DNA of 14,879 nt from Dysgonamonadaceae bacterium (lineage in GTDB: Bacteria; Bacteroidota; Bacteroidia; Bacteroidales; Azobacteroidaceae): the NCBI GenBank assembly GCA_031276105.1, contig JAISNS010000029.1, positions 1 through 14,879 of the forward strand, given 5' to 3'. Positions 3,183-10,882 of the stretch are shown in pieces. Each line of letters starts with the position of its first letter. Position 1 is the first letter of the stretch. The notes under the pieces are model-generated. The model saw only the letters and a program-made list of their open reading frames with translations. It was not told where the DNA came from and did no database searches. A program made the translations under genes and the position numbers.

Positions 3183-4256
3183 TTAATTTATAGTCTTCAT
3201 TTCAAACTCCTGCATTGTTTCGATCAACGCCATTACGGCTTCTTTCGGCAGAGCGTTGTATGTTGAGGCTCTGAAGCCGCCTACCGAACGATGTCCTTTG
3301 ATACCTACCATTCCGCGGGCGGTGGCGAATTGATAAAACTCAGCTTCCAGCGATTGATATTCCTCGTTCATCACGAAGCAGATATTCATCAACGAGCGGT
3401 CTTCTACGGCAGCTGTTCCGTGGAACAATTTATTCCGGTCGATTTCGTCATACAGCAGGGCGGCTTTTTCTTTATTCCGTTTATACATGGATTCGACTCC
3501 GCCCAAGGCTTTTAACCATTTCAGGGTTTGCAAAGCGGCGTAAACAGGAACGACCGGAGGCGTATTGAACATGGAGCCGTCTTTGATATGCGTCCGGTAA
3601 TCCAGCATGGTAGGTATCGGGCGGCTTACTTTACCTAAAAGCTCTTCTTTTACGACAACAAACGTTACGCCGGCCGGAGCCAGGTTTTTTTGTGCGCCGC
3701 CATAGATAAGCCCGTATTTACCGACATCGACAGGGCGGGAAAAAATATCGGACGACATATCGGCAACCAACGGTACCGGCGAATCCAAATCGGTATGAAT
3801 TTCCGTTCCGAAAATGGTGTTGTTTGTCGTGATATGAAAATAATCCGCGTCGGACGGAATCGTGTAGTTTTTGGGGATATAGCTGTAATTAGCTTCTTTC
3901 GAAGAGGCGACTTCAACTACTTCTCCGAATAATTTGGCTTCTTTTTGCGCCTTATTAGCCCACGTTCCGGTGTTGAGGTAAGCCGCTTTTTTCTCTAATA
4001 GATTATAGGGGATCATGCAAAATTCCAGACTGGCGCCTCCGCCGAGGAACAAGACGGAATAACCGTCGGGAATGTCCAACAATTCTTTGAACAAAACGAC
4101 GGTTTCGTCCATCACCGCCTGAAAATCTTTGGATCGGTGGCTTATTTCCATAAGACTCAAACCGCTTCCTGCAAAATTCTCAATCGCCCGGCTGGTGTTT
4201 TCTATCGTTTCTTTGGGGAGGATAGAAGGTCCCGCATTGAAATTATACTTTTCCAT
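3183..4256 (-). CDS. serC: Phosphoserine aminotransferase
   Basis: PLP enzyme that converts 3-phosphohydroxypyruvate and glutamate to O-phosphoserine in serine synthesis; the same family also serves pyridoxal phosphate synthesis. The protein is 357 aa, the usual length. It opens with [11 protein letters not shown] (4-14), the family signature. It has the phosphate-cup LGGGASLEF (71-79), [11 protein letters not shown] (165-174) and the cofactor lysine Lys190 in [10 protein letters not shown]. The C-terminal [14 protein letters not shown] motif is intact. The next gene downstream is pgk rather than serA, which I recall as a frequent neighbour in Bacteroidales. A weak -7-like box (TAACTTCG on the minus strand, about 4291-4298) lies upstream with no good -33. 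Confidence 0.97.
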
Positions 4257-4403: not shown

Positions 4404-6110
4404 TTATTGTTTGTAGCAGCCTAAATTTTCGATATTAAATCCATTGATAAATTCGTAAATCTTGTTCACTTCCGCTTCGCCGTAATTGATATACACTTCC
4501 GCCGAGCGCTTGAACTCTTCCGGACAACGGTTGGCATCCTGCAACAACAGATAACCTAAAATGATGTGACCGGCACATTCCACCAAGCGACGAGCTTGAA
4601 AATCAATGTATTCGCTGTTTTTGGTATCGGCAACTTTCGGAACTAACCGTTCGTATAGCTCAACTAATTTCGCCAGACGAGTTTTCAAAGCGTCTAATTC
4701 GGGGCTAAGCGGCTCTTCCTGATAGGCTTTCATCTGCAACAGATAAGTACCCGTCAGGACGTGGCGAATGGCCGCTACGACCTGCAATTGAGTCGTCCCT
4801 TCGTAGATGTTGGTGATGCGGGCGTCGCGATAATAACGTTCGCACGGATAATCTTTCATGAAGCCCGACCCGCCGTGAATCTGGATGCAGTCGTAAGTAT
4901 TCTGATTGGCGTATTCGGTGTTCATCGCTTTTCCGAGCGGCGTAAAAGCATCGGCCAGTTTCTTGTATTTTTTCAGTTCTTCTTTTTCTGCCGGATCCAG
5001 TTTACGTTCTTTTTCAATATCTTCCAATACTTTGTAGATGTCCACGAAGCGAGCGGTTTCGTAAAGAACAGCGCGTGAAGCGTCTAATTTCGCCTTGATA
5101 TTGGCAATCATTTCGTAAACCGGCGGAAATTCGATAATGGCTTTGCCGAACTGTTTCCGGTCTTTGGCGTAGGCAACTGCTTCGCGATAAGCCGCTTCCG
5201 ACAAACCGGTCGCTTGCGCCATGATGCCTAAGCGGGCGCCGTTCATCAACGACATGACGTATTTAATCAGTCCCAAACGACGGGAACCGCAGAGTTGCGC
5301 TTTGGCGTTTTTGTAGGTCAATTCGCAGGTAGGCGATCCTTTGATGCCCATTTTGTTTTCGATGCGGCGGACATTTACGCCTCCATCGCGCTTGTCGTAA
5401 ATGAACATGGACAGACCGCGACCGTCTCGCGTTCCTTCTTCCGAACGCGCCAGAACCAAGTGAATATCAGCGTCTCCGTTGGTGATAAAACGTTTTACGC
5501 CGTTCAAACGCCAGCAATCGTTGGCTTCGTCATAAGTTGCTTTCAGCATGACGGCTTGGAGGTCGGAACCGGCGTCGGGTTCGGTCAAGTCCATCGACAT
5601 GGTTTCGCCGTTGCAAACGCGGGGAATGAATTGCTGACGTTGGGCTTCGTCGCCAAACTCATACAAGGTTTCCGCGCAATCTTGCAAAGCCCAAAGGTTG
5701 CAGAAACCGGCGTCGGCGCGAGCTGCCATATCGGAGGCCATGATGAAAGCGACCATCGGGAAATTCAATCCTCCGTAACGGCGCGGCATCGACAGCCCCA
5801 TTAAACCGGCTTGCGTGGTTGCTTTCAGGTTTTGTACCGTTCCTTTGGCATATTGTACGCGGTTGTTGCTGACGGTTGGCCCTTGAGCGTCCACGTCTTC
5901 CGCATTCGGCGCTACTACTTCGCCAATCACTTCGCCGGCAATTTCCATTACTTTTTCGTAACTGTCCATCGCATCTTCGAAGTCGAAAGGCGCATAATCA
6001 AATAAATCTTTTTCCGTGTAATTCCGTTCTTTCAGTTCCACGATTCGCTTCATCAACGGATGATGCAAATGGTGTTTCATCGACGGATTGTCTAAATAAA
6101 AATTAGCCAT
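4404..6110 (-). CDS. Acyl-CoA dehydrogenase, long (568 aa) Bacteroidota type
   Basis: FAD enzyme that introduces or removes the alpha-beta double bond of acyl-CoA thioesters, exchanging electrons with an electron-transfer flavoprotein. The N-terminal, middle and C-terminal acyl-CoA dehydrogenase domains are all present: MDLTEPDAGSDL (173-184), WRLNGVKRFITNG (200-212), AYAKDRKQFGK (313-323), IQIHGGSGFMKDYPCERYYRDARI (409-432) and the catalytic-base motif IYEGTTQLQ with Glu437. At 568 aa it is far longer than the classical 380-aa enzymes. The extra length is an N-terminal lead of about 40 residues, a charged helical insert near 355-385, and a C-terminal helical extension of about 110 residues. 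It lies in the same strand series as etfB and etfA, its probable redox partners, but is separated from them by the satD-DUF3307 pair. It starts 28 bp after the DUF3307 stop. Physiological substrate is unknown. Confidence 0.94.
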   Translation of the reverse strand: MANFYLDNPSMKHHLHHPLMKRIVELKERNYTEKDLFDYAPFDFEDAMDSYEKVMEIAGEVIGEVVAPNAEDVDAQGPTVSNNRVQYAKGTVQNLKATTQAGLMGLSMPRRYGGLNFPMVAFIMASDMAARADAGFCNLWALQDCAETLYEFGDEAQRQQFIPRVCNGETMSMDLTEPDAGSDLQAVMLKATYDEANDCWRLNGVKRFITNGDADIHLVLARSEEGTRDGRGLSMFIYDKRDGGVNVRRIENKMGIKGSPTCELTYKNAKAQLCGSRRLGLIKYVMSLMNGARLGIMAQATGLSEAAYREAVAYAKDRKQFGKAIIEFPPVYEMIANIKAKLDASRAVLYETARFVDIYKVLEDIEKERKLDPAEKEELKKYKKLADAFTPLGKAMNTEYANQNTYDCIQIHGGSGFMKDYPCERYYRDARITNIYEGTTQLQVVAAIRHVLTGTYLLQMKAYQEEPLSPELDALKTRLAKLVELYERLVPKVADTKNSEYIDFQARRLVECAGHIILGYLLLQDANRCPEEFKRSAEVYINYGEAEVNKIYEFINGFNIENLGCYKQ

Positions 6111-6138
6111 TATTGTTTAATTTTTGAAATTGTTAATA

Positions 6139-6867
6139 TTAAATTTGACAAATAGATATAAATAAAATTAATTCACTGTAAGCAATTCCCAAGAGAATTG
6201 CAATACCAAAACTCAGAAAAGAACCGATTAAGAGATATTCTGTTTGAGCCGTATCGCTGTCTTTGAATCTCAAAATGGACTTTGCGGCAATGATAAAACC
6301 TACTGCGGCAAATTGATCGAATGAAATCAGAATGAAAGACAAAACACGTTCCAGAAAACCGATTACCCTGCCTGCTTTCAACAGTTGTTCGTTATCTTTC
6401 TCTTTTTTAGCAATAACAATATTATTTGCTTCCATGTATTTCTTGATAAAAATATTGGATGGCTTTGAAGATGCAATGACAGCAAACAGGATGAAAACCG
6501 GATTTATCGAAATGAAAGGGGGATATTGAATCAACGCTTTTTTCGAAAACAGATACACAACGCCGGTGATAATGAGCAAATGCAAAATCTGATCAATGAA
6601 AAAAAGATAATTTTCCGCTATTCCTTTCCGAAATAAATAACTTTTTGTAACATCCAGCAAGAAGTGAAAAGCGGCAATAAGCAAAGCTGCCCACCAGAAA
6701 GAAACCGAAAAAGAAAGAACCCAAGAACAAACAAAAACGACGGCAATGTGGTAAAAATACACCTTACTGATTTTTTTACTGTTTTTTACGTCGCACCAAG
6801 TTTGCGGTTGAAAGTTAAAGTCGGCCAATGTGTGGGCTGTGAACTGAAGGATTAATAAGGTATGCAT
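6139..6867 (-). CDS. DUF3307 family multi-pass membrane protein
   Basis: Inner-membrane protein of unknown function, 242 aa, with about six or seven hydrophobic segments (roughly 1-12, 38-73, 90-107, 119-135, 168-195, 212-232). It shows the recurrent polar motifs I associate with DUF3307 (PF11750): HTLADFNFQ (His12, Asp16, Gln20), Trp24 and Lys28, His40, HFLLDVTK (His68, Asp72, Lys75), and DQILH (Asp92, His96). A conserved C-terminal block is GRVIGFLERVLSF (166-178), AAKSILRF (194-201) and TEYLLIGSFLS (209-219). Repeated His/Asp pairs near membrane boundaries could bind a metal or form an active site; that is my inference. The ATG is one base after the satD stop, so the pair is surely cotranscribed and probably works together. 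Its GC is low (about 28% in one counted line). The neighbouring acyl-CoA dehydrogenase gives about 52%. Confidence 0.8.
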   Translation of the reverse strand: MHTLLILQFTAHTLADFNFQPQTWCDVKNSKKISKVYFYHIAVVFVCSWVLSFSVSFWWAALLIAAFHFLLDVTKSYLFRKGIAENYLFFIDQILHLLIITGVVYLFSKKALIQYPPFISINPVFILFAVIASSKPSNIFIKKYMEANNIVIAKKEKDNEQLLKAGRVIGFLERVLSFILISFDQFAAVGFIIAAKSILRFKDSDTAQTEYLLIGSFLSFGIAILLGIAYSELILFISICQI

Positions 6868-6868
6868 G

Positions 6869-7546
6869 TTAAATAATTATTTTTTCAAAGTAATCTACGG
6901 CGCTTTCCACGGCAAACCAGCCTGCTGCTGTGGAATGTTGGTTAATGGTAGATTGACCTTTAGTTAATATTCCGGTTATTTCTTTTTCCGATTTGTTTAA
7001 TAATTTATAAAAGATGATTTGGCTTTGCGCTCTTTTGTATTTGGAAAATAAAACGTCCAAAAGGTCGAAAACAGGAAGCATCGATTGATTCCATTCTTCA
7101 TTTTTACTTTTGAAAACCAGCGTATTTTTCACTTTTTTATCACGCAAAGACATTTCATTAACGGCTCTTCCCGATAGATAAATGGCTTCCCCGTCGATGA
7201 TTCCTTTTCTTTTATTCCAAATAGAAAGTTCGCCTATTCCAATCGCAATTCTAATTCCGTATTCTCTGAAATCTTTTATTTTTTTATTGGAAATTTTATC
7301 GGCTTTCATATCCAACGACTTAACAAACGATTTCATTAACAAGGCAACTCGTAAAGCCAAACGGGGTTCTTCCAGTACACATTCAATGTAATCGCCTTTG
7401 ATTAAGCGGCCAAAGAATATTTTAGTACCCAAAGTTTGTCTTAAAATATTCAACAGCTTCATCAATTCTTTTTCAAGAAACAATCGTTGCTCTACATTTA
7501 ACGAAGTAGAAGAAACAATGTCGGCAGATATAGTTGCTTTGTTCAT
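6869..7546 (-). CDS. SatD-like protein: cyclase-fold-like domain plus helix-turn-helix
   Basis: A 225-aa cytosolic protein that I place in the SatD family (PF16264, named after a gene in a Streptococcus mutans acid-tolerance operon). The N-terminal part resembles a degenerate class III nucleotide cyclase: ISADIVSST (Asp9 where the first metal ligand would be), RLIKGDYIECVLEEPRLALRVAL (Asp52 as the second, 47-69), then YGIRIAIGIGEL (96-107) and IDGEAIYLSGRAVNEM (117-132). In the last block Arg127 fits the catalytic arginine, but Tyr123 replaces the usual Asn. The C-terminus (about 172-212) reads as a helix-turn-helix: RAQSQIIFYKLLNKSEKEIT, then KGQSTINQHSTAAGW. It is cotranscribed with the DUF3307 gene (one-base gap). 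It lies directly downstream of the tandem palindrome array, which it may bind. GC is only about 27% in one counted line, against 47-52% in etf and acd, suggesting separate origin. Family call fairly sure; cyclase and DNA-binding roles are inference. Confidence 0.72.
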   Translation of the reverse strand: MNKATISADIVSSTSLNVEQRLFLEKELMKLLNILRQTLGTKIFFGRLIKGDYIECVLEEPRLALRVALLMKSFVKSLDMKADKISNKKIKDFREYGIRIAIGIGELSIWNKRKGIIDGEAIYLSGRAVNEMSLRDKKVKNTLVFKSKNEEWNQSMLPVFDLLDVLFSKYKRAQSQIIFYKLLNKSEKEITGILTKGQSTINQHSTAAGWFAVESAVDYFEKIII

Positions 7547-7550
7547 CTTG

Positions 7551-7558
7551 CAAATATA
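7551..7558 (-). promoter_or_regulatory. Putative -7 box abutting the satD-like start
   Basis: On the minus strand TATATTTG matches the Bacteroidota -7 consensus TAnnTTTG exactly and is followed by only CAAG before the ATG. No TTG is seen at the usual distance upstream. If used, the transcript would start within a few bases of the start codon and be essentially leaderless. The palindrome array begins 16 bp upstream of the box, a position suited to control by a bound regulator. Confidence 0.4.
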
Positions 7559-7574
7559 CGCAAAATTATTGGGA

Positions 7575-7690
7575 AACCCGGAATATCGGTAAATTTACCG
7601 ATAAAACCCAAATATCGGTAAATTTACCGATAAACCCAAAATATCGGTAAATTTACCGATAAACCCGGAATATCGGTAAATTTACCGATA
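7575..7690. repeat. Four tandem 29-bp units, each with a perfect 20-bp palindrome
   Basis: The palindrome TATCGGTAAATTTACCGATA occurs unchanged at 7584-7603, 7613-7632, 7642-7661 and 7671-7690, exactly 29 bp apart. The 9-base linkers are AACCCGGAA, AAACCCAAA, AACCCAAAA and AACCCGGAA, so the palindromes are invariant while the linkers vary. The array fills the gap between the etfA stop (ends 4 bases away) and the satD-like gene. As DNA it looks like a four-site operator for a dimeric regulator. As RNA each unit folds into an 8-bp stem with an AATT loop, which could cap the etfBA message. It does not resemble CRISPR, because the linkers are only 9 bases. Confidence 0.95.
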
Positions 7691-7694
7691 AAAG

Positions 7695-8714
7695 TCATTT
7701 GCTGTTCTTTTTGTAATACTTAATCATCTTTGGGATAACGGTTTCCGCTTCACCCGTAATCACATAATCGGCAATTGCGTTGATGGGAGCATTCGGATCG
7801 TTGTTGATAGCGATAATCATAGAGGCATCCTGCATTCCGGCGATGTGCTGAATTTGGCCGGAAATACCGCAAGCAATATAGAGTTTCGGGCGAACGGTTA
7901 CTCCGGTTTGACCGATTTGCCGCTCGTGTTCGGCAAAACCGGCGTCCACAGCCGCACGGGAAGCGCCTACTTCTGCGCCGATGGTGTTGGCCAAGTCGTA
8001 GAGCAAACCGAAATTTTCTTTCGACCCCATGCCGTAGCCTCCGGCAACAATGATAGGTGCGCCTTTGATATTCACTTTCGACGCTTCGATATGACGTTCG
8101 ATAACGCTTACAACAAAATCCGCATCGGAGATATATTTTTTCACATCGTAGGAAACGGTTTTACCCTGATAATTAGCGTCTAAGATTTCTTTTTTCATCA
8201 CTCCTTCGCGAACGGTTGCCATTTGAGGGCGATTGTCGGGATTGACGATTGTCGCCACAATGTTTCCGCCAAAAGCCGGACGGATTTGATACAAAAGATC
8301 GGTATAGGTTTTCCCTTCCTTTTTTTCTTCGTGGTCGCCGATTTCCAATGCGGTACAGTCGGCGGTTAAGCCGCTGAACAATGCGGATGAAACGCGCGGC
8401 CCCAAGTCGCGGCCAATGCTGGTTGCACCCATAAAAGCGATTTGCGGCTTTTCGGCTTCAAACAGCTTGACCAAGATAGAAGTATGAGGCAGAGAGGTAT
8501 AAGGATACAAACGGGCATCGTCGAAGAGATGAAGCACGTCCACTCCGTAAGGAAACACCTGTTCGCCGATTGTTTCCAGCGATTGACCGACGGCAACGGC
8601 TTCCAAGCGGCAATTCAGCCGGGTGGCAAGCGTGCGACCTTTGGTAAGGAGTTCGAGACTGACGTCTTCCACTTTTCCGTTTTCTATTTCGAGATATACA
8701 AATAAATTATTCAT
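7695..8714 (-). CDS. etfA: Electron transfer flavoprotein, alpha subunit
   Basis: FAD-carrying subunit of the heterodimeric electron-transfer flavoprotein. Its 339 aa comprise an N-terminal alpha/beta domain and the typical C-terminal FAD domain: GASRAAVDAGF (250-260), QIGQTGVTV (266-274), GISGQIQHIAGM (283-294) and AINNDPNAPI (302-311), then ADYVITGEAETVIPKMI. It starts four bases after the etfB stop, so the two subunits are made from one message. The gene ends four bases before the palindrome array, which may therefore form the 3' end of the etfBA transcript or control what follows. Its expected client is the acyl-CoA dehydrogenase encoded three genes downstream. Confidence 0.97.
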   Translation of the reverse strand: MNNLFVYLEIENGKVEDVSLELLTKGRTLATRLNCRLEAVAVGQSLETIGEQVFPYGVDVLHLFDDARLYPYTSLPHTSILVKLFEAEKPQIAFMGATSIGRDLGPRVSSALFSGLTADCTALEIGDHEEKKEGKTYTDLLYQIRPAFGGNIVATIVNPDNRPQMATVREGVMKKEILDANYQGKTVSYDVKKYISDADFVVSVIERHIEASKVNIKGAPIIVAGGYGMGSKENFGLLYDLANTIGAEVGASRAAVDAGFAEHERQIGQTGVTVRPKLYIACGISGQIQHIAGMQDASMIIAINNDPNAPINAIADYVITGEAETVIPKMIKYYKKNSK

Positions 8715-8718
8715 CTTT

Positions 8719-9591
8719 TTATCCGATTGTGTGATTGGTAATTAATTCTACCATTAATTCTTCGATTTGTTGGTCGGAAGAATCAAGGGTTTTACTCTCT
8801 TTGGCCTGAAAAACGACGTTTTCGATCTTCTTCACTTTGGTGGGCGATCCGGAAAGTCCGCACTGTTTCGCGTCGGCGTTCACGTCGGCCGCGCTCCATT
8901 CGTTGAGAAAAAGGCAAGTGCGCGAATGACAGAGATTAACGTAGTCGTTGCTTTCGGCTTGCCGTTCGGAAACGGTTTTGGCATATTTGTATTTCTGAAT
9001 CAGTTTGGCGTTGCGCGGACGGCAGTCGGGCGCCGAACCATTGACCGTTACCAAAAGGGGCAAATGACCTTCGACGATTTCGACGCCTCGTTCCAAGCGG
9101 CGTTTAACCGTGATTTTCCCGTTGGCGATCGATTGAATTTCTTCGGCATAAGTAATCTGCGAAATACCCAGTTTTTCGGCAACCTGCGGGCCAACCTGAG
9201 CCGTATCGCCGTCAATGGCTTGACGACCGGAAATAATCAGGTCGAAATCGCCGATTTTTTTTATCGCCATGTGAAGGGCATAACTGGTTGCCAGCGTATC
9301 GGCGCCGGCAAAAACGCGGTCGGTGAGCAGATAGCCGCCGTCGGCGCCTCTGAATAATCCTTCACGGATAATGTCTGCCGCACGGGGAGGCCCCATGGTG
9401 AGCAGGGTAACGGTCGAACCGGGGAATTGATCTTTCAAGCGTAGCGCTTGTTCCAAGGCGTTCAAGTCTTCCGGATTGAAAATGGCCGGAAGAGCGGCGC
9501 GATTGACCGTTCCATCGGCTTTCATCGCGTCTTTTCCTACATTTCGCGTATCCGGCACTTGCTTGGCCAGTACAATAATTTTTAGACTCAT
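8719..9591 (-). CDS. etfB: Electron transfer flavoprotein, beta subunit
   Basis: Nucleotide-binding partner of EtfA, 290 aa. It starts MSLKIIVLAKQVPDT and contains RAALPAIFNPEDLNALEQAL (31-50), the adenine-nucleotide or second-FAD loop AIDGDTAQVGP (125-135) and the C-terminal GLSGSPTKVKKIENV (245-259). The DGDTAQVG form, rather than the DDDxNQTG form of mitochondrial-type beta subunits, is that of ETF groups containing flavin-based electron-bifurcating members; whether this protein bifurcates is inference. Its reductive partner would be the 568-aa acyl-CoA dehydrogenase, with NADH and ferredoxin or a quinone system on the other side. It is the first gene of its leftward operon and has a good promoter 40 bases upstream. 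GC is about 47% in a counted line. Confidence 0.97.
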   Translation of the reverse strand: MSLKIIVLAKQVPDTRNVGKDAMKADGTVNRAALPAIFNPEDLNALEQALRLKDQFPGSTVTLLTMGPPRAADIIREGLFRGADGGYLLTDRVFAGADTLATSYALHMAIKKIGDFDLIISGRQAIDGDTAQVGPQVAEKLGISQITYAEEIQSIANGKITVKRRLERGVEIVEGHLPLLVTVNGSAPDCRPRNAKLIQKYKYAKTVSERQAESNDYVNLCHSRTCLFLNEWSAADVNADAKQCGLSGSPTKVKKIENVVFQAKESKTLDSSDQQIEELMVELITNHTIG

Positions 9592-9778: not shown

Positions 9779-10882
9779 CTACTGTATAATCTGTTTGACG
9801 GCTCCCGTATGAGGATAGAAAAAAATTTGCACCGGCGCTTTTTTATCTTCAAACAAAGAAGTCGCCAATATTTGGGTTGCGCCGAATTGAGTAACCGGAT
9901 GTTCGCCTTTGTAGAAGCAGTTTAAACCGTAATAAACTTCTACGAAAGCTGTTCCGGGAATATTATAAACGATGCTTTGCGGCTCTTTGGCTTTTCTTTT
10001 CGGATCGACTTCCGGTATTTCTACCGTTTTCAAATCTTTCAGGTTGATATAGACCGGACTTCCGCTCAAATCATCAACGGAAACAATTCCTCTGTATTTT
10101 GAAAAACGGAACAAGATTTCTTTTTCCATATCTGCCACCGGTTCGATACTGAATTTATCGTTTTTCTTCTCTGTTTGACTGGAACCGGTGAACAATTCCA
10201 TCCATATTTTTTCTTGTTCATCCAAGTTGGCTAAGACAATTTTCAGCGCTTCACCATCTCTGGGGGCATTTTCTGCTTCTCCGGTTAATATATCCGAACG
10301 ACTTTCGCGAATCCGGTAAATTTGTTTGGCCGCTATTTCGGCCATTTTACTAACCGAACCTGCCCGTAGATATTCTTCGGTATAAACAGATTGTGTATTG
10401 ATCGGGGGTTTCAGAGTCGCCGGATTGGATGGATTGTCCGTTTTTTTTATTTCAGCAGAAATTTGGGGGTTGTACTCGGCATTGATGGTGCAAATCAAGC
10501 CATTTTCGGTCAGATATACATAAGGAGCCGTTGTTTTTGCCTTAAATTCAATCAGATAAGATTCATTTTTATTCGGAATTCCTAATGCTTTGACATTTAC
10601 TTTGTCCAGAGTATAATAAGTCAAATCTTCCGATATAACCGATTGACTGTCAATTCCCAAATATTTGGAGGCATACTTGGCATAAATGCCGGCTTTTTGT
10701 TTGGTTTCGCTATATTCTACTTCTATTTCCAATAGGGTTTTGGGGAGAAAATATTGAATCCCATAATTATTGCTTTTGATAGCATTTATTTTCACAACAT
10801 TTGTTTGAGCTTGCAATTGTAAACTCAACAAACTCAATATACTCCCCATTATCAGGAGAGTAATTTTTTTTTCAGGTTTCAT
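9779..10882 (-). CDS. DUF4831 family exported protein
   Basis: Protein of unknown function, 367 aa, with a standard signal peptide (MKPEKKITLLIMGSILSLLS, cleavage probably after LQAQ near residue 26). The mature part would be periplasmic or outer-membrane associated, with no lipobox cysteine. Recognisable family-like stretches are GIQYFLPKTLLEIEVE (42-57), KYASKYLGI, a middle AAKQIYRIRESRSDILTGEAENAPRDG region, and a beta-rich C-terminus with IVYNIPGTAFVEVYYG. The assignment to DUF4831 (PF16115), a Bacteroidota-restricted family, is from memory of these motifs. The gene begins seven bases after the nnr stop, so it is probably the second gene of a two-gene operon. That does not reveal a function, because Nnr is a housekeeping repair enzyme. 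Confidence 0.8.
   Translation of the reverse strand: MKPEKKITLLIMGSILSLLSLQLQAQTNVVKINAIKSNNYGIQYFLPKTLLEIEVEYSETKQKAGIYAKYASKYLGIDSQSVISEDLTYYTLDKVNVKALGIPNKNESYLIEFKAKTTAPYVYLTENGLICTINAEYNPQISAEIKKTDNPSNPATLKPPINTQSVYTEEYLRAGSVSKMAEIAAKQIYRIRESRSDILTGEAENAPRDGEALKIVLANLDEQEKIWMELFTGSSQTEKKNDKFSIEPVADMEKEILFRFSKYRGIVSVDDLSGSPVYINLKDLKTVEIPEVDPKRKAKEPQSIVYNIPGTAFVEVYYGLNCFYKGEHPVTQFGATQILATSLFEDKKAPVQIFFYPHTGAVKQIIQ

What the first reader, a model, noticed from the sequence alone, without database searches (positions are those of the whole stretch)
7575..7690. Four-unit tandem palindrome array between etfA and the satD-like gene
Four invariant copies of a perfect 20-bp palindrome, exactly 29 bp apart, separated by 9-base linkers that vary. 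Unchanged palindromes with drifting linkers suggest selection on the palindrome rather than recent copying alone. 29 bp is about 2.75 helical turns. It could be a cooperative multi-site operator, a set of RNA hairpins protecting or ending etfBA mRNA, or a recombination or replication-associated site.
Basis: partly seen in the sequence, partly recalled or inferred. Interest (0 to 1): 0.8.

Follow-up and report, generated by a model that had tools for sequence, protein, structure and literature searches.

The report
Operator array of a SatD-like repressor
The four repeated mirror-image DNA sites sit just in front of a two-gene unit found across the Bacteroidota, and the letters of such sites change in step with the predicted DNA-reading helix of the first gene's protein, so they are likely the landing strip through which that predicted regulator switches its own genes off.

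Summary
In detail: four exact copies of TATCGGTAAATTTACCGATA (7584-7690), 29 bp apart, with no other copy in the host assembly at up to 3 mismatches. The array belongs to the satD-like/DUF3307 gene pair, not to etfA. In a scan of periods 20-40 bp upstream of satD in 159 related loci, 129 gave a strong array, all at 28 or 29 bp, against 6 of 373 control upstreams. The word drifts between lineages; the spacing does not. DUF3307 directly follows satD in 112 of 113 loci. The SatD-like protein models as a nucleotidyl-cyclase-fold domain plus a C-terminal helix-turn-helix. Recognition-helix residues 203, 199 and 200 covary with the variable half-site triplet more than any other SatD or DUF3307 column. 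In 3 loci the array stands before DUF3307 instead of satD. Most likely it is the autoregulatory operator of a nearly single-operon repressor, read as alternating 6-bp half-sites every 14/15 bp. Binding, sign of control and ligand are untested. RNA-hairpin and dispersed-repeat readings are disfavoured. My searches showed no description of it.

The parts
7584..7603 (.). Operator copy 1 (nearest the satD-like start): TATCGG-N8-CCGATA
   Evidence: its half-sites begin 57 and 43 nt before the ATG
7613..7632 (.). Operator copy 2
7642..7661 (.). Operator copy 3
7671..7690 (.). Operator copy 4
7551..7568 (-). Two neighbouring Bacteroidota -7-like elements, TAATTTTG (7561-7568) and TATATTTG (7551-7558), just before the ATG; predicted promoter (motif recalled)
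   Evidence: TAnnTTTG within 45 nt of the ATG in 40 of 91 related loci vs 11 of 439 control stretches
6869..7546 (-). satD-like gene, 225 aa: predicted cyclase-fold + HTH regulator
7103..7546 (-). N-terminal class III nucleotidyl-cyclase/GGDEF-like fold (residues 1-148)
6926..6955 (-). Predicted recognition helix, residues 198-207 (QSTINQHSTA), with S199, T200, Q203
6139..6867 (-). DUF3307 membrane protein, 242 aa; one base lies between it and the satD-like stop codon; predicted operon partner

Best explanation
The array is a row of four 20-bp palindromic sites directly upstream of the satD-like/DUF3307 gene pair, and it is likely the operator that the SatD-like protein binds cooperatively to repress its own operon. 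Shown: an array of this kind is kept at a 28- or 29-bp period upstream of this gene pair across the Bacteroidota, and its variable bases covary with three residues of the modelled recognition helix. The conserved units are 6-bp half-sites in alternating orientation, 14 bp apart within a dyad and 14 or 15 bp apart across a linker, so the array reads as an almost evenly spaced train. Inferred: each half-site takes one HTH, neighbouring protomers touch along the train, and the bound chain blocks the promoter. Inferred and least certain: the cyclase-fold domain binds a nucleotide or metal-nucleotide ligand whose level releases the DNA and lets the membrane protein be made.
For: Position and spacing: 129 of 159 satD upstreams score at least 12 in a period scan of 20-40 bp, all 129 at 28 or 29; controls 6 of 373 (two of them arrays just before DUF3307), shuffles 2 of 159. 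Base identity at a lag is 0.399 at 29 and 0.352 at 28 (0.28-0.33 at most other lags, with further rises at 56 and 58) in 100 loci, against 0.261 at both in 276 controls. Linkage: DUF3307 directly downstream in 112 of 113 loci. In L170, L172 and L175 the array lies between satD and DUF3307 instead. Specificity: residue 203 Q goes with G at half-site position 7 in 42 of 43 loci, G with T in 11 of 11, E with G in 11 of 12, K with C in 9 of 10; residue 200 A goes with A at position 6 in 18 of 19, T/S with G in 46 of 55 (n=91). For positions 5-7 together Q203, S199 and T200 rank 1-3 of 425 SatD plus DUF3307 columns (n=87). At 35-50% and 50-80% cyclase-domain identity, same residues 200+203 mean same bases 6-7 in 82% of 128 and 93% of 167 pairs, against 23% of 911 and 18% of 380 when they differ; 0 of 60 control column pairs reach it in either band (pairs are not independent). 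Copies within an array share the arm word (82-100% per position) but not the linkers (33% at the edge). Dedicated site. Promoter: in 19 of 40 loci with TAnnTTTG the last dyad centre lies 15-17 bp upstream of it, so a bound protein would cover the core promoter.
Against: No binding or expression data exist here. Residue 203 R pairs with mixed bases (C4 T2 G2 A2 of 10). In the most distant pairs (under 25% identity) the 200+203 rule gives no real gain (0.04; 2 of 23 controls reach it), and over all pairs under 35% 3 of 52 controls reach its gain. T200's rank depends on the redundancy cut: for the triplet it is 2nd at 95%, 3rd at 80% and 8th at 65%. For position 5 alone at the 95% cut E161 ranks first. 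In the nearest-pair test V18 and A128 scored above Q203. 30 of 159 loci score under 12 and 10 of these give no array: three have it before DUF3307, L064 has a foreign-looking upstream, and L097, L155 and L166 show none by eye. The last dyad centre varies from -11 to -131, and in the window it lies 25 and 35 bp upstream of the two candidate -7 elements, so promoter blocking is not uniform and activation is possible.
Confidence: 0.82

Rival explanations
1. The same array bound by the SatD-like protein, but as an activator (or a dual regulator) of satD/DUF3307 rather than a repressor.
For: The last dyad centre is often around -40 from the ATG and can lie more than 100 bp upstream; in the window no copy overlaps the predicted -7 elements. 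The HTH resembles sigma-70 region 4 in up to 3 of 29 relatives.
Against: In 19 of 40 loci with a recognisable -7 element the last dyad centre is 15-17 bp upstream of it, and in close relatives (L019, L021, L024) the last dyad centre is 18 nt from the ATG, on top of the -7 region.
Confidence: 0.14
2. RNA hairpins at the 3' end of etfBA mRNA that end or protect the transcript.
For: As RNA the region folds far better than shuffles (z -9.98); two terminator-like matches against 0.3 expected; etfA lies directly upstream in the same direction.
Against: Upstream gene is divergent in 28 of 91 loci; the array sits before DUF3307 in three loci; copies within an array share one word and that word tracks satD recognition-helix residues, which hairpins would not need.
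Confidence: 0.03
3. A dispersed or mobile repeat, or a recombination, partition or replication site, that happens to lie beside satD.
For: Tandem copies with identical words look like recent copying; the satD/DUF3307 pair sits in varied neighbourhoods, as mobile units do.
Against: No other copy in the host at up to 3 mismatches; in 24 genomes searched for their own word (14, 10 including the host) exact dyads lie almost only in satD arrays; none of the 12 window proteins scanned against Pfam is a recombinase or partition protein, 2 of them without a match; only 1 viral contig and 1 plasmid held a relative.
Confidence: 0.01

Closest known systems
SatD family (Pfam PF16264; named after Streptococcus mutans SatD, recalled)
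   Same: 18 of 29 aligned relatives match PF16264 at E up to 0.001; the window protein matches weakly over residues 92-185
   Different: The window protein is below the gathering score (18.9 vs 29 bits). In the listings I saw the family has no stated regulator role; here it is predicted to be a transcription factor with a mapped operator.
Class III nucleotidyl cyclases / GGDEF / Cas10 palm fold
   Different: Fused to a C-terminal HTH and tied to a cognate operator array; catalytic activity not shown; no sequence match to any PDB chain at E up to 1.
Local autoregulators with tandem palindromic operators (for example TetR/LexA-type repressors; recalled)
   Same: HTH protein, dyad sites in its own promoter region, operon with one further gene
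   Different: Different fold; trains of 2-7 dyads at an almost fixed 28/29-bp period kept across a phylum while the word drifts.
Pycsar (uridylate/cytidylate cyclase plus membrane effector; recalled)
   Same: A cyclase-fold protein encoded with a membrane protein; cUMP synthase 7r65 and uridylate cyclase 8jsz are among the fold matches
   Different: No PADLOC match for either protein; the cyclase-fold protein here carries an HTH and an operator.

Membership tests
SatD family PF16264 | Profile score at or above the gathering cut-off | tested here: not met
   18.9 bits against 29, E 0.0012; called SatD-like for this reason. 18 of 29 relatives match at E up to 0.001.
DUF3307 PF11750 | Profile score at or above the gathering cut-off | tested here: met
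   77.3 bits against 23 for window 6139-6867
Class III nucleotidyl cyclase | Cyclase (palm) fold of the catalytic domain | tested here: met
   AF2 model pLDDT 92.9. The same list holds GGDEF and Cas10 palms, so the fold does not single out cyclases.
Class III nucleotidyl cyclase | Two metal-binding aspartates | tested here: inconclusive
   D9 and D52 are invariant in 29 diverse relatives; their match to the cyclase aspartates rests on recalled motifs, not on a structural alignment.
Class III nucleotidyl cyclase | Transition-state Asn/Arg pair and cyclase activity | not testable with these tools
   R127 is invariant in the 87 rows of A2 but not in the wider A3; no assay.
HTH autoregulator with own operator | HTH domain | tested here: met
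   Helices 172-182, 187-194, 198-207; sigma-70 region 4 or other HTH profiles hit a few of 29 relatives, not the window protein itself
HTH autoregulator with own operator | Dyad sites in the promoter region of its own gene, largely unique in the genome | tested here: met
HTH autoregulator with own operator | Site word covaries with recognition-helix residues | tested here: met
   mixed
HTH autoregulator with own operator | Binding and repression shown | not testable with these tools
   needs bench work
Pycsar defence | Match to PADLOC cyclase or effector models | tested here: not met
   0 families at E up to 1 for both proteins

The most novel reading that the evidence does not exclude
SatD-like proteins are a phylum-wide class of nucleotide-gated repressors: a retooled nucleotidyl-cyclase domain senses or turns over a nucleotide while its HTH tail builds a helical protein filament on an evenly spaced train of alternating half-sites; the nucleotide state dissolves the filament and releases a membrane protein of unknown fold (DUF3307) that acts on the same signal, and in some lineages a type I restriction-modification system has been placed under the same switch.
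Probability: 0.15. Interest if true: 0.88.

Novelty: new variant of a known kind. Interest (0 to 1): 0.68.

Why it matters
It gives a predicted function to a protein family known mainly by name: a regulator made of a cyclase-fold domain and an HTH, with its operator, its target gene and a partial residue-to-base recognition code, all from sequence. It also pairs an uncharacterised membrane protein (DUF3307) with a dedicated switch, so that the gene can be turned on or off on purpose and its role found. The fixed 28/29-bp spacing under drifting words is a natural experiment on how a protein chain assembles on DNA.

Tried and rejected

Rows left out of the counts: own-genome copies of the locus (L005, L099, L132); near relatives L006-L010 and L012 (the same loci are L019 and L021-L025) and L011 (the N8-loop case), read by eye only; fragments L014 and L179-L181; the distant L018, L178 and L183; duplicates L013, L162 and L171; L184 (read by eye only). 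each returned at most 30 loci. The 159 loci still hold some genomes fetched twice; searches use 91 and one search uses 87 loci, after removing proteins over 80% identical and arrays scoring under 10.

Full report
OBSERVATION. The window holds four exact copies of the 20-bp palindrome TATCGGTAAATTTACCGATA at 7584, 7613, 7642 and 7671, 29 bp apart; shuffles give none. The assembly in which the window lies has no further copy with up to 3 mismatches. The looser dyad TATCGG-N8-CCGATA occurs once more in that assembly, inside an open reading frame on another contig. The array lies between the stop of etfA (7695) and the ATG of a 225-aa gene on the minus strand (7546), which is followed after one base by a DUF3307 gene. 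All run the same way, so neighbourhood alone does not say to which gene the array belongs.

WHOSE ARRAY IS IT? In the nearest relatives tandem palindromes stand directly before the satD-like ATG, by eye also where the upstream sequence is not etfA (L011, L012), and with other words: TATCGGTAAAAATACCGATA, with the loop of the middle copy reversed, in L009; ATTATCGG-N8-CCGATAAT in L011; AATTCGGT... in L012. For 159 satD upstreams I scored every period from 20 to 40 bp. 129 scored at least 12, and all 129 had their best period at 28 or 29; 80 scored at least 20. Of 373 upstream regions of other genes in the same loci 6 reached 12, and of 159 shuffles 2 did. Two of those six controls are arrays between satD and DUF3307 (L170, L175) and two (L034, L037) a second short array beyond DUF3307; L172 also has its array between the two genes. 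Ten of the 159 gave no array: the three just named, L064, whose upstream has 61% G+C against 38% in its gene, and L097, L102, L127, L155, L166 and L168; two more had another best period. A count that assumes no palindrome agrees: base identity at a lag is 0.399 at 29 and 0.352 at 28 bp, with further rises at 56 and 58, in 100 loci, and 0.261 at both in 276 controls. The DUF3307 gene follows satD directly in 112 of 113 loci; the other contig ends after 46 bp. The genes further out vary: upstream neighbour codirectional in 57, divergent in 28 and not found in 6 of 91 loci; the downstream neighbours of 34 loci match 62 Pfam families in all.

ANATOMY. Across arrays the arms at positions 5-10 from the centre are palindromic in 80-98% of copies and alike between neighbouring copies in 82-100%; the inner 8 bp are alike in 54-68% and the linker edges in 33%. 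The unit is therefore two 6-bp half-sites, 14 bp centre to centre, with 15 bp (period 29) or 14 bp (period 28) to the next dyad: an almost even train of alternating half-sites. In the window the half-sites begin at -144, -130, -115, -101, -86, -72, -57 and -43 from the ATG. The half-site pattern is mostly [A/T]TAT followed by a variable triplet. Relatives with N at residue 202 have period 29 in 42 of 45, those with S have 28 in 34 of 42. Copy number is 2-7, most often 3 (56 of 91).

WHAT BINDS IT? The satD-like protein was modelled with mean pLDDT 92.9: residues 1-148 form a class III nucleotidyl-cyclase/GGDEF/Cas10-like palm, and residues 172-207 a helix-turn-helix with recognition helix 198-207. 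Across 91 loci (no two proteins over 80% identical) the triplet follows the helix: residue 203 Q goes with G at position 7 in 42 of 43, E with G in 11 of 12, G with T in 11 of 11, K with C in 9 of 10; residue 200 A goes with A at position 6 in 18 of 19 and T or S with G in 46 of 55. R at 203 is mixed. Ranked by excess mutual information with the triplet, Q203, S199 and T200 come first, second and third of 199 SatD and 226 DUF3307 columns; the best DUF3307 column reaches 0.63 against 1.07, 0.76 and 0.74 (n=87). Since the columns share one history, this speaks for contact, not only for kinship. The ranking is not perfect: for position 5 alone a DUF3307 column (0.42) comes close to S199 (0.44), and at a 65% redundancy cut T200 falls to 8th for the triplet, though it stays first for position 6. 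In pairs of loci with 35-50% or 50-80% identical cyclase domains, sharing residues 200 and 203 means sharing bases 6 and 7 in 82% and 93%, against 23% and 18% otherwise, and none of 60 control column pairs does as well; under 25% identity there is no real gain. One telling case is L157, whose cyclase domain is 76% identical to that of L104 (helix QNSVSGR, word CGT), but which has QSGVSRR and the word TTACC, like the distant QAAVSRR group. The nearest-pair test was mixed: V18 and A128 scored above Q203. The window itself was not in these counts, and its S199, T200, Q203 with word CGG fit the table.

HOW IT LIKELY WORKS. A Bacteroidota-type -7 element (TAnnTTTG, motif recalled) lies within 45 nt of the ATG in 40 of 91 loci against 11 of 439 control stretches, and in 19 of those 40 the last dyad centre is 15-17 bp upstream of it. 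A protein on that dyad would cover the core promoter, so repression is the likelier sign. In the window the last dyad lies 25 and 35 bp upstream of two candidate -7 elements at 7551-7568, so activation cannot be excluded. The three loci with the array between satD and DUF3307 suggest that DUF3307 is the gene that must be controlled. Exact dyads are almost absent elsewhere: 27 of 33 exact TATCGG-N8-CCGATA matches in 10 genomes lie in satD arrays; the other 6 are single sites, where the reversed control pattern gives 0. In 14 genomes whose word is TTATTAG or near it, all 17 exact matches lie within the fetched satD loci (13 genomes; the 14th has one-mismatch copies only), and one-mismatch hits elsewhere number 21, against 88 for the reversed control pattern (my count). 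So this is mainly a one-operon regulator, inferred to be autoregulatory. What the cyclase-fold domain senses is unknown; two aspartates, D9 and D52, are invariant in 29 diverse relatives and sit in motifs that resemble the metal-binding sites of class III cyclases (recalled).

A LEAD ON TARGETS. In L034, L037 and L053 SatD-type dyads lie between DUF3307 and a type I restriction-modification gene (HsdM in L034 and L037, HsdR-like in L053), and in L063 an HsdM-like gene follows DUF3307 at once. Four loci, chosen by eye and without a background rate, are a lead and no more.

RIVALS. As RNA the region folds strongly (z -9.98) and two terminator-like hits are found, but tandem perfect palindromes fold well as RNA whatever their role; the divergent neighbours, the displaced arrays and the covariation with a DNA-reading helix speak against an RNA role. 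A dispersed repeat is disfavoured by its near absence elsewhere. An activator role for the same protein and site is the serious rival.

NOVELTY. My searches (listings only, open-licence papers only) showed no account of SatD-like proteins as regulators, of their operator, or of the pair with DUF3307. Operator arrays with a local HTH repressor are a known kind; the cyclase-fold regulator, the phylum-wide fixed train of half-sites and the drifting word make it a new variant.

Noticed in passing
window 4404-9591: In the window the satD-like/DUF3307 pair stands between etfBA and an acyl-CoA dehydrogenase gene, all on the minus strand; in relative L019 an acyl-CoA dehydrogenase also follows DUF3307. 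The pair looks like an insertion into an etf/acyl-CoA dehydrogenase cluster.
   Followed up: partly
L034 and L037 after DUF3307 (about 3900-3992); L053 about 3940; L063 3934: SatD-type dyads lie between DUF3307 and a type I restriction-modification gene in L034 and L037 (HsdM) and L053 (HsdR-like); in L063 an HsdM-like gene follows DUF3307 at once. SatD may control restriction there too.
   Followed up: partly
L170, L172, L175, downstream of satD: No array before satD; instead an array of satD type lies between satD and DUF3307.
   Followed up: yes
L184 2892-2939: The only viral-collection relative (IMG/VR) also shows, by eye, two dyads (ACACCC...GGGTAT) 29 bp apart before its satD-like gene and a DUF3307-like start after it.
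   Followed up: partly
window 6139-6867; alignment A4: DUF3307 has polar residues invariant in 28 sequences (H40, Q93, H96, N138, E173, R174, K196, E210) and its AF2 model (pLDDT 91.2) has no convincing PDB match; it may be an uncharacterised membrane enzyme or transporter.
   Followed up: partly
L064 upstream of 525: The 190 bp before satD have 61% G+C against 38% in the gene and carry no array; possibly a chimeric contig.
   Followed up: partly
proteins P0017, P0019, P0032: Public names for close homologs are inconsistent: fumarate hydratase, RNA polymerase subunit sigma-70, SatD family protein.
   Followed up: no
window 9779-10882: DUF4831 protein (E 5.3e-109) upstream of the etf genes, function unknown.
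   Followed up: no
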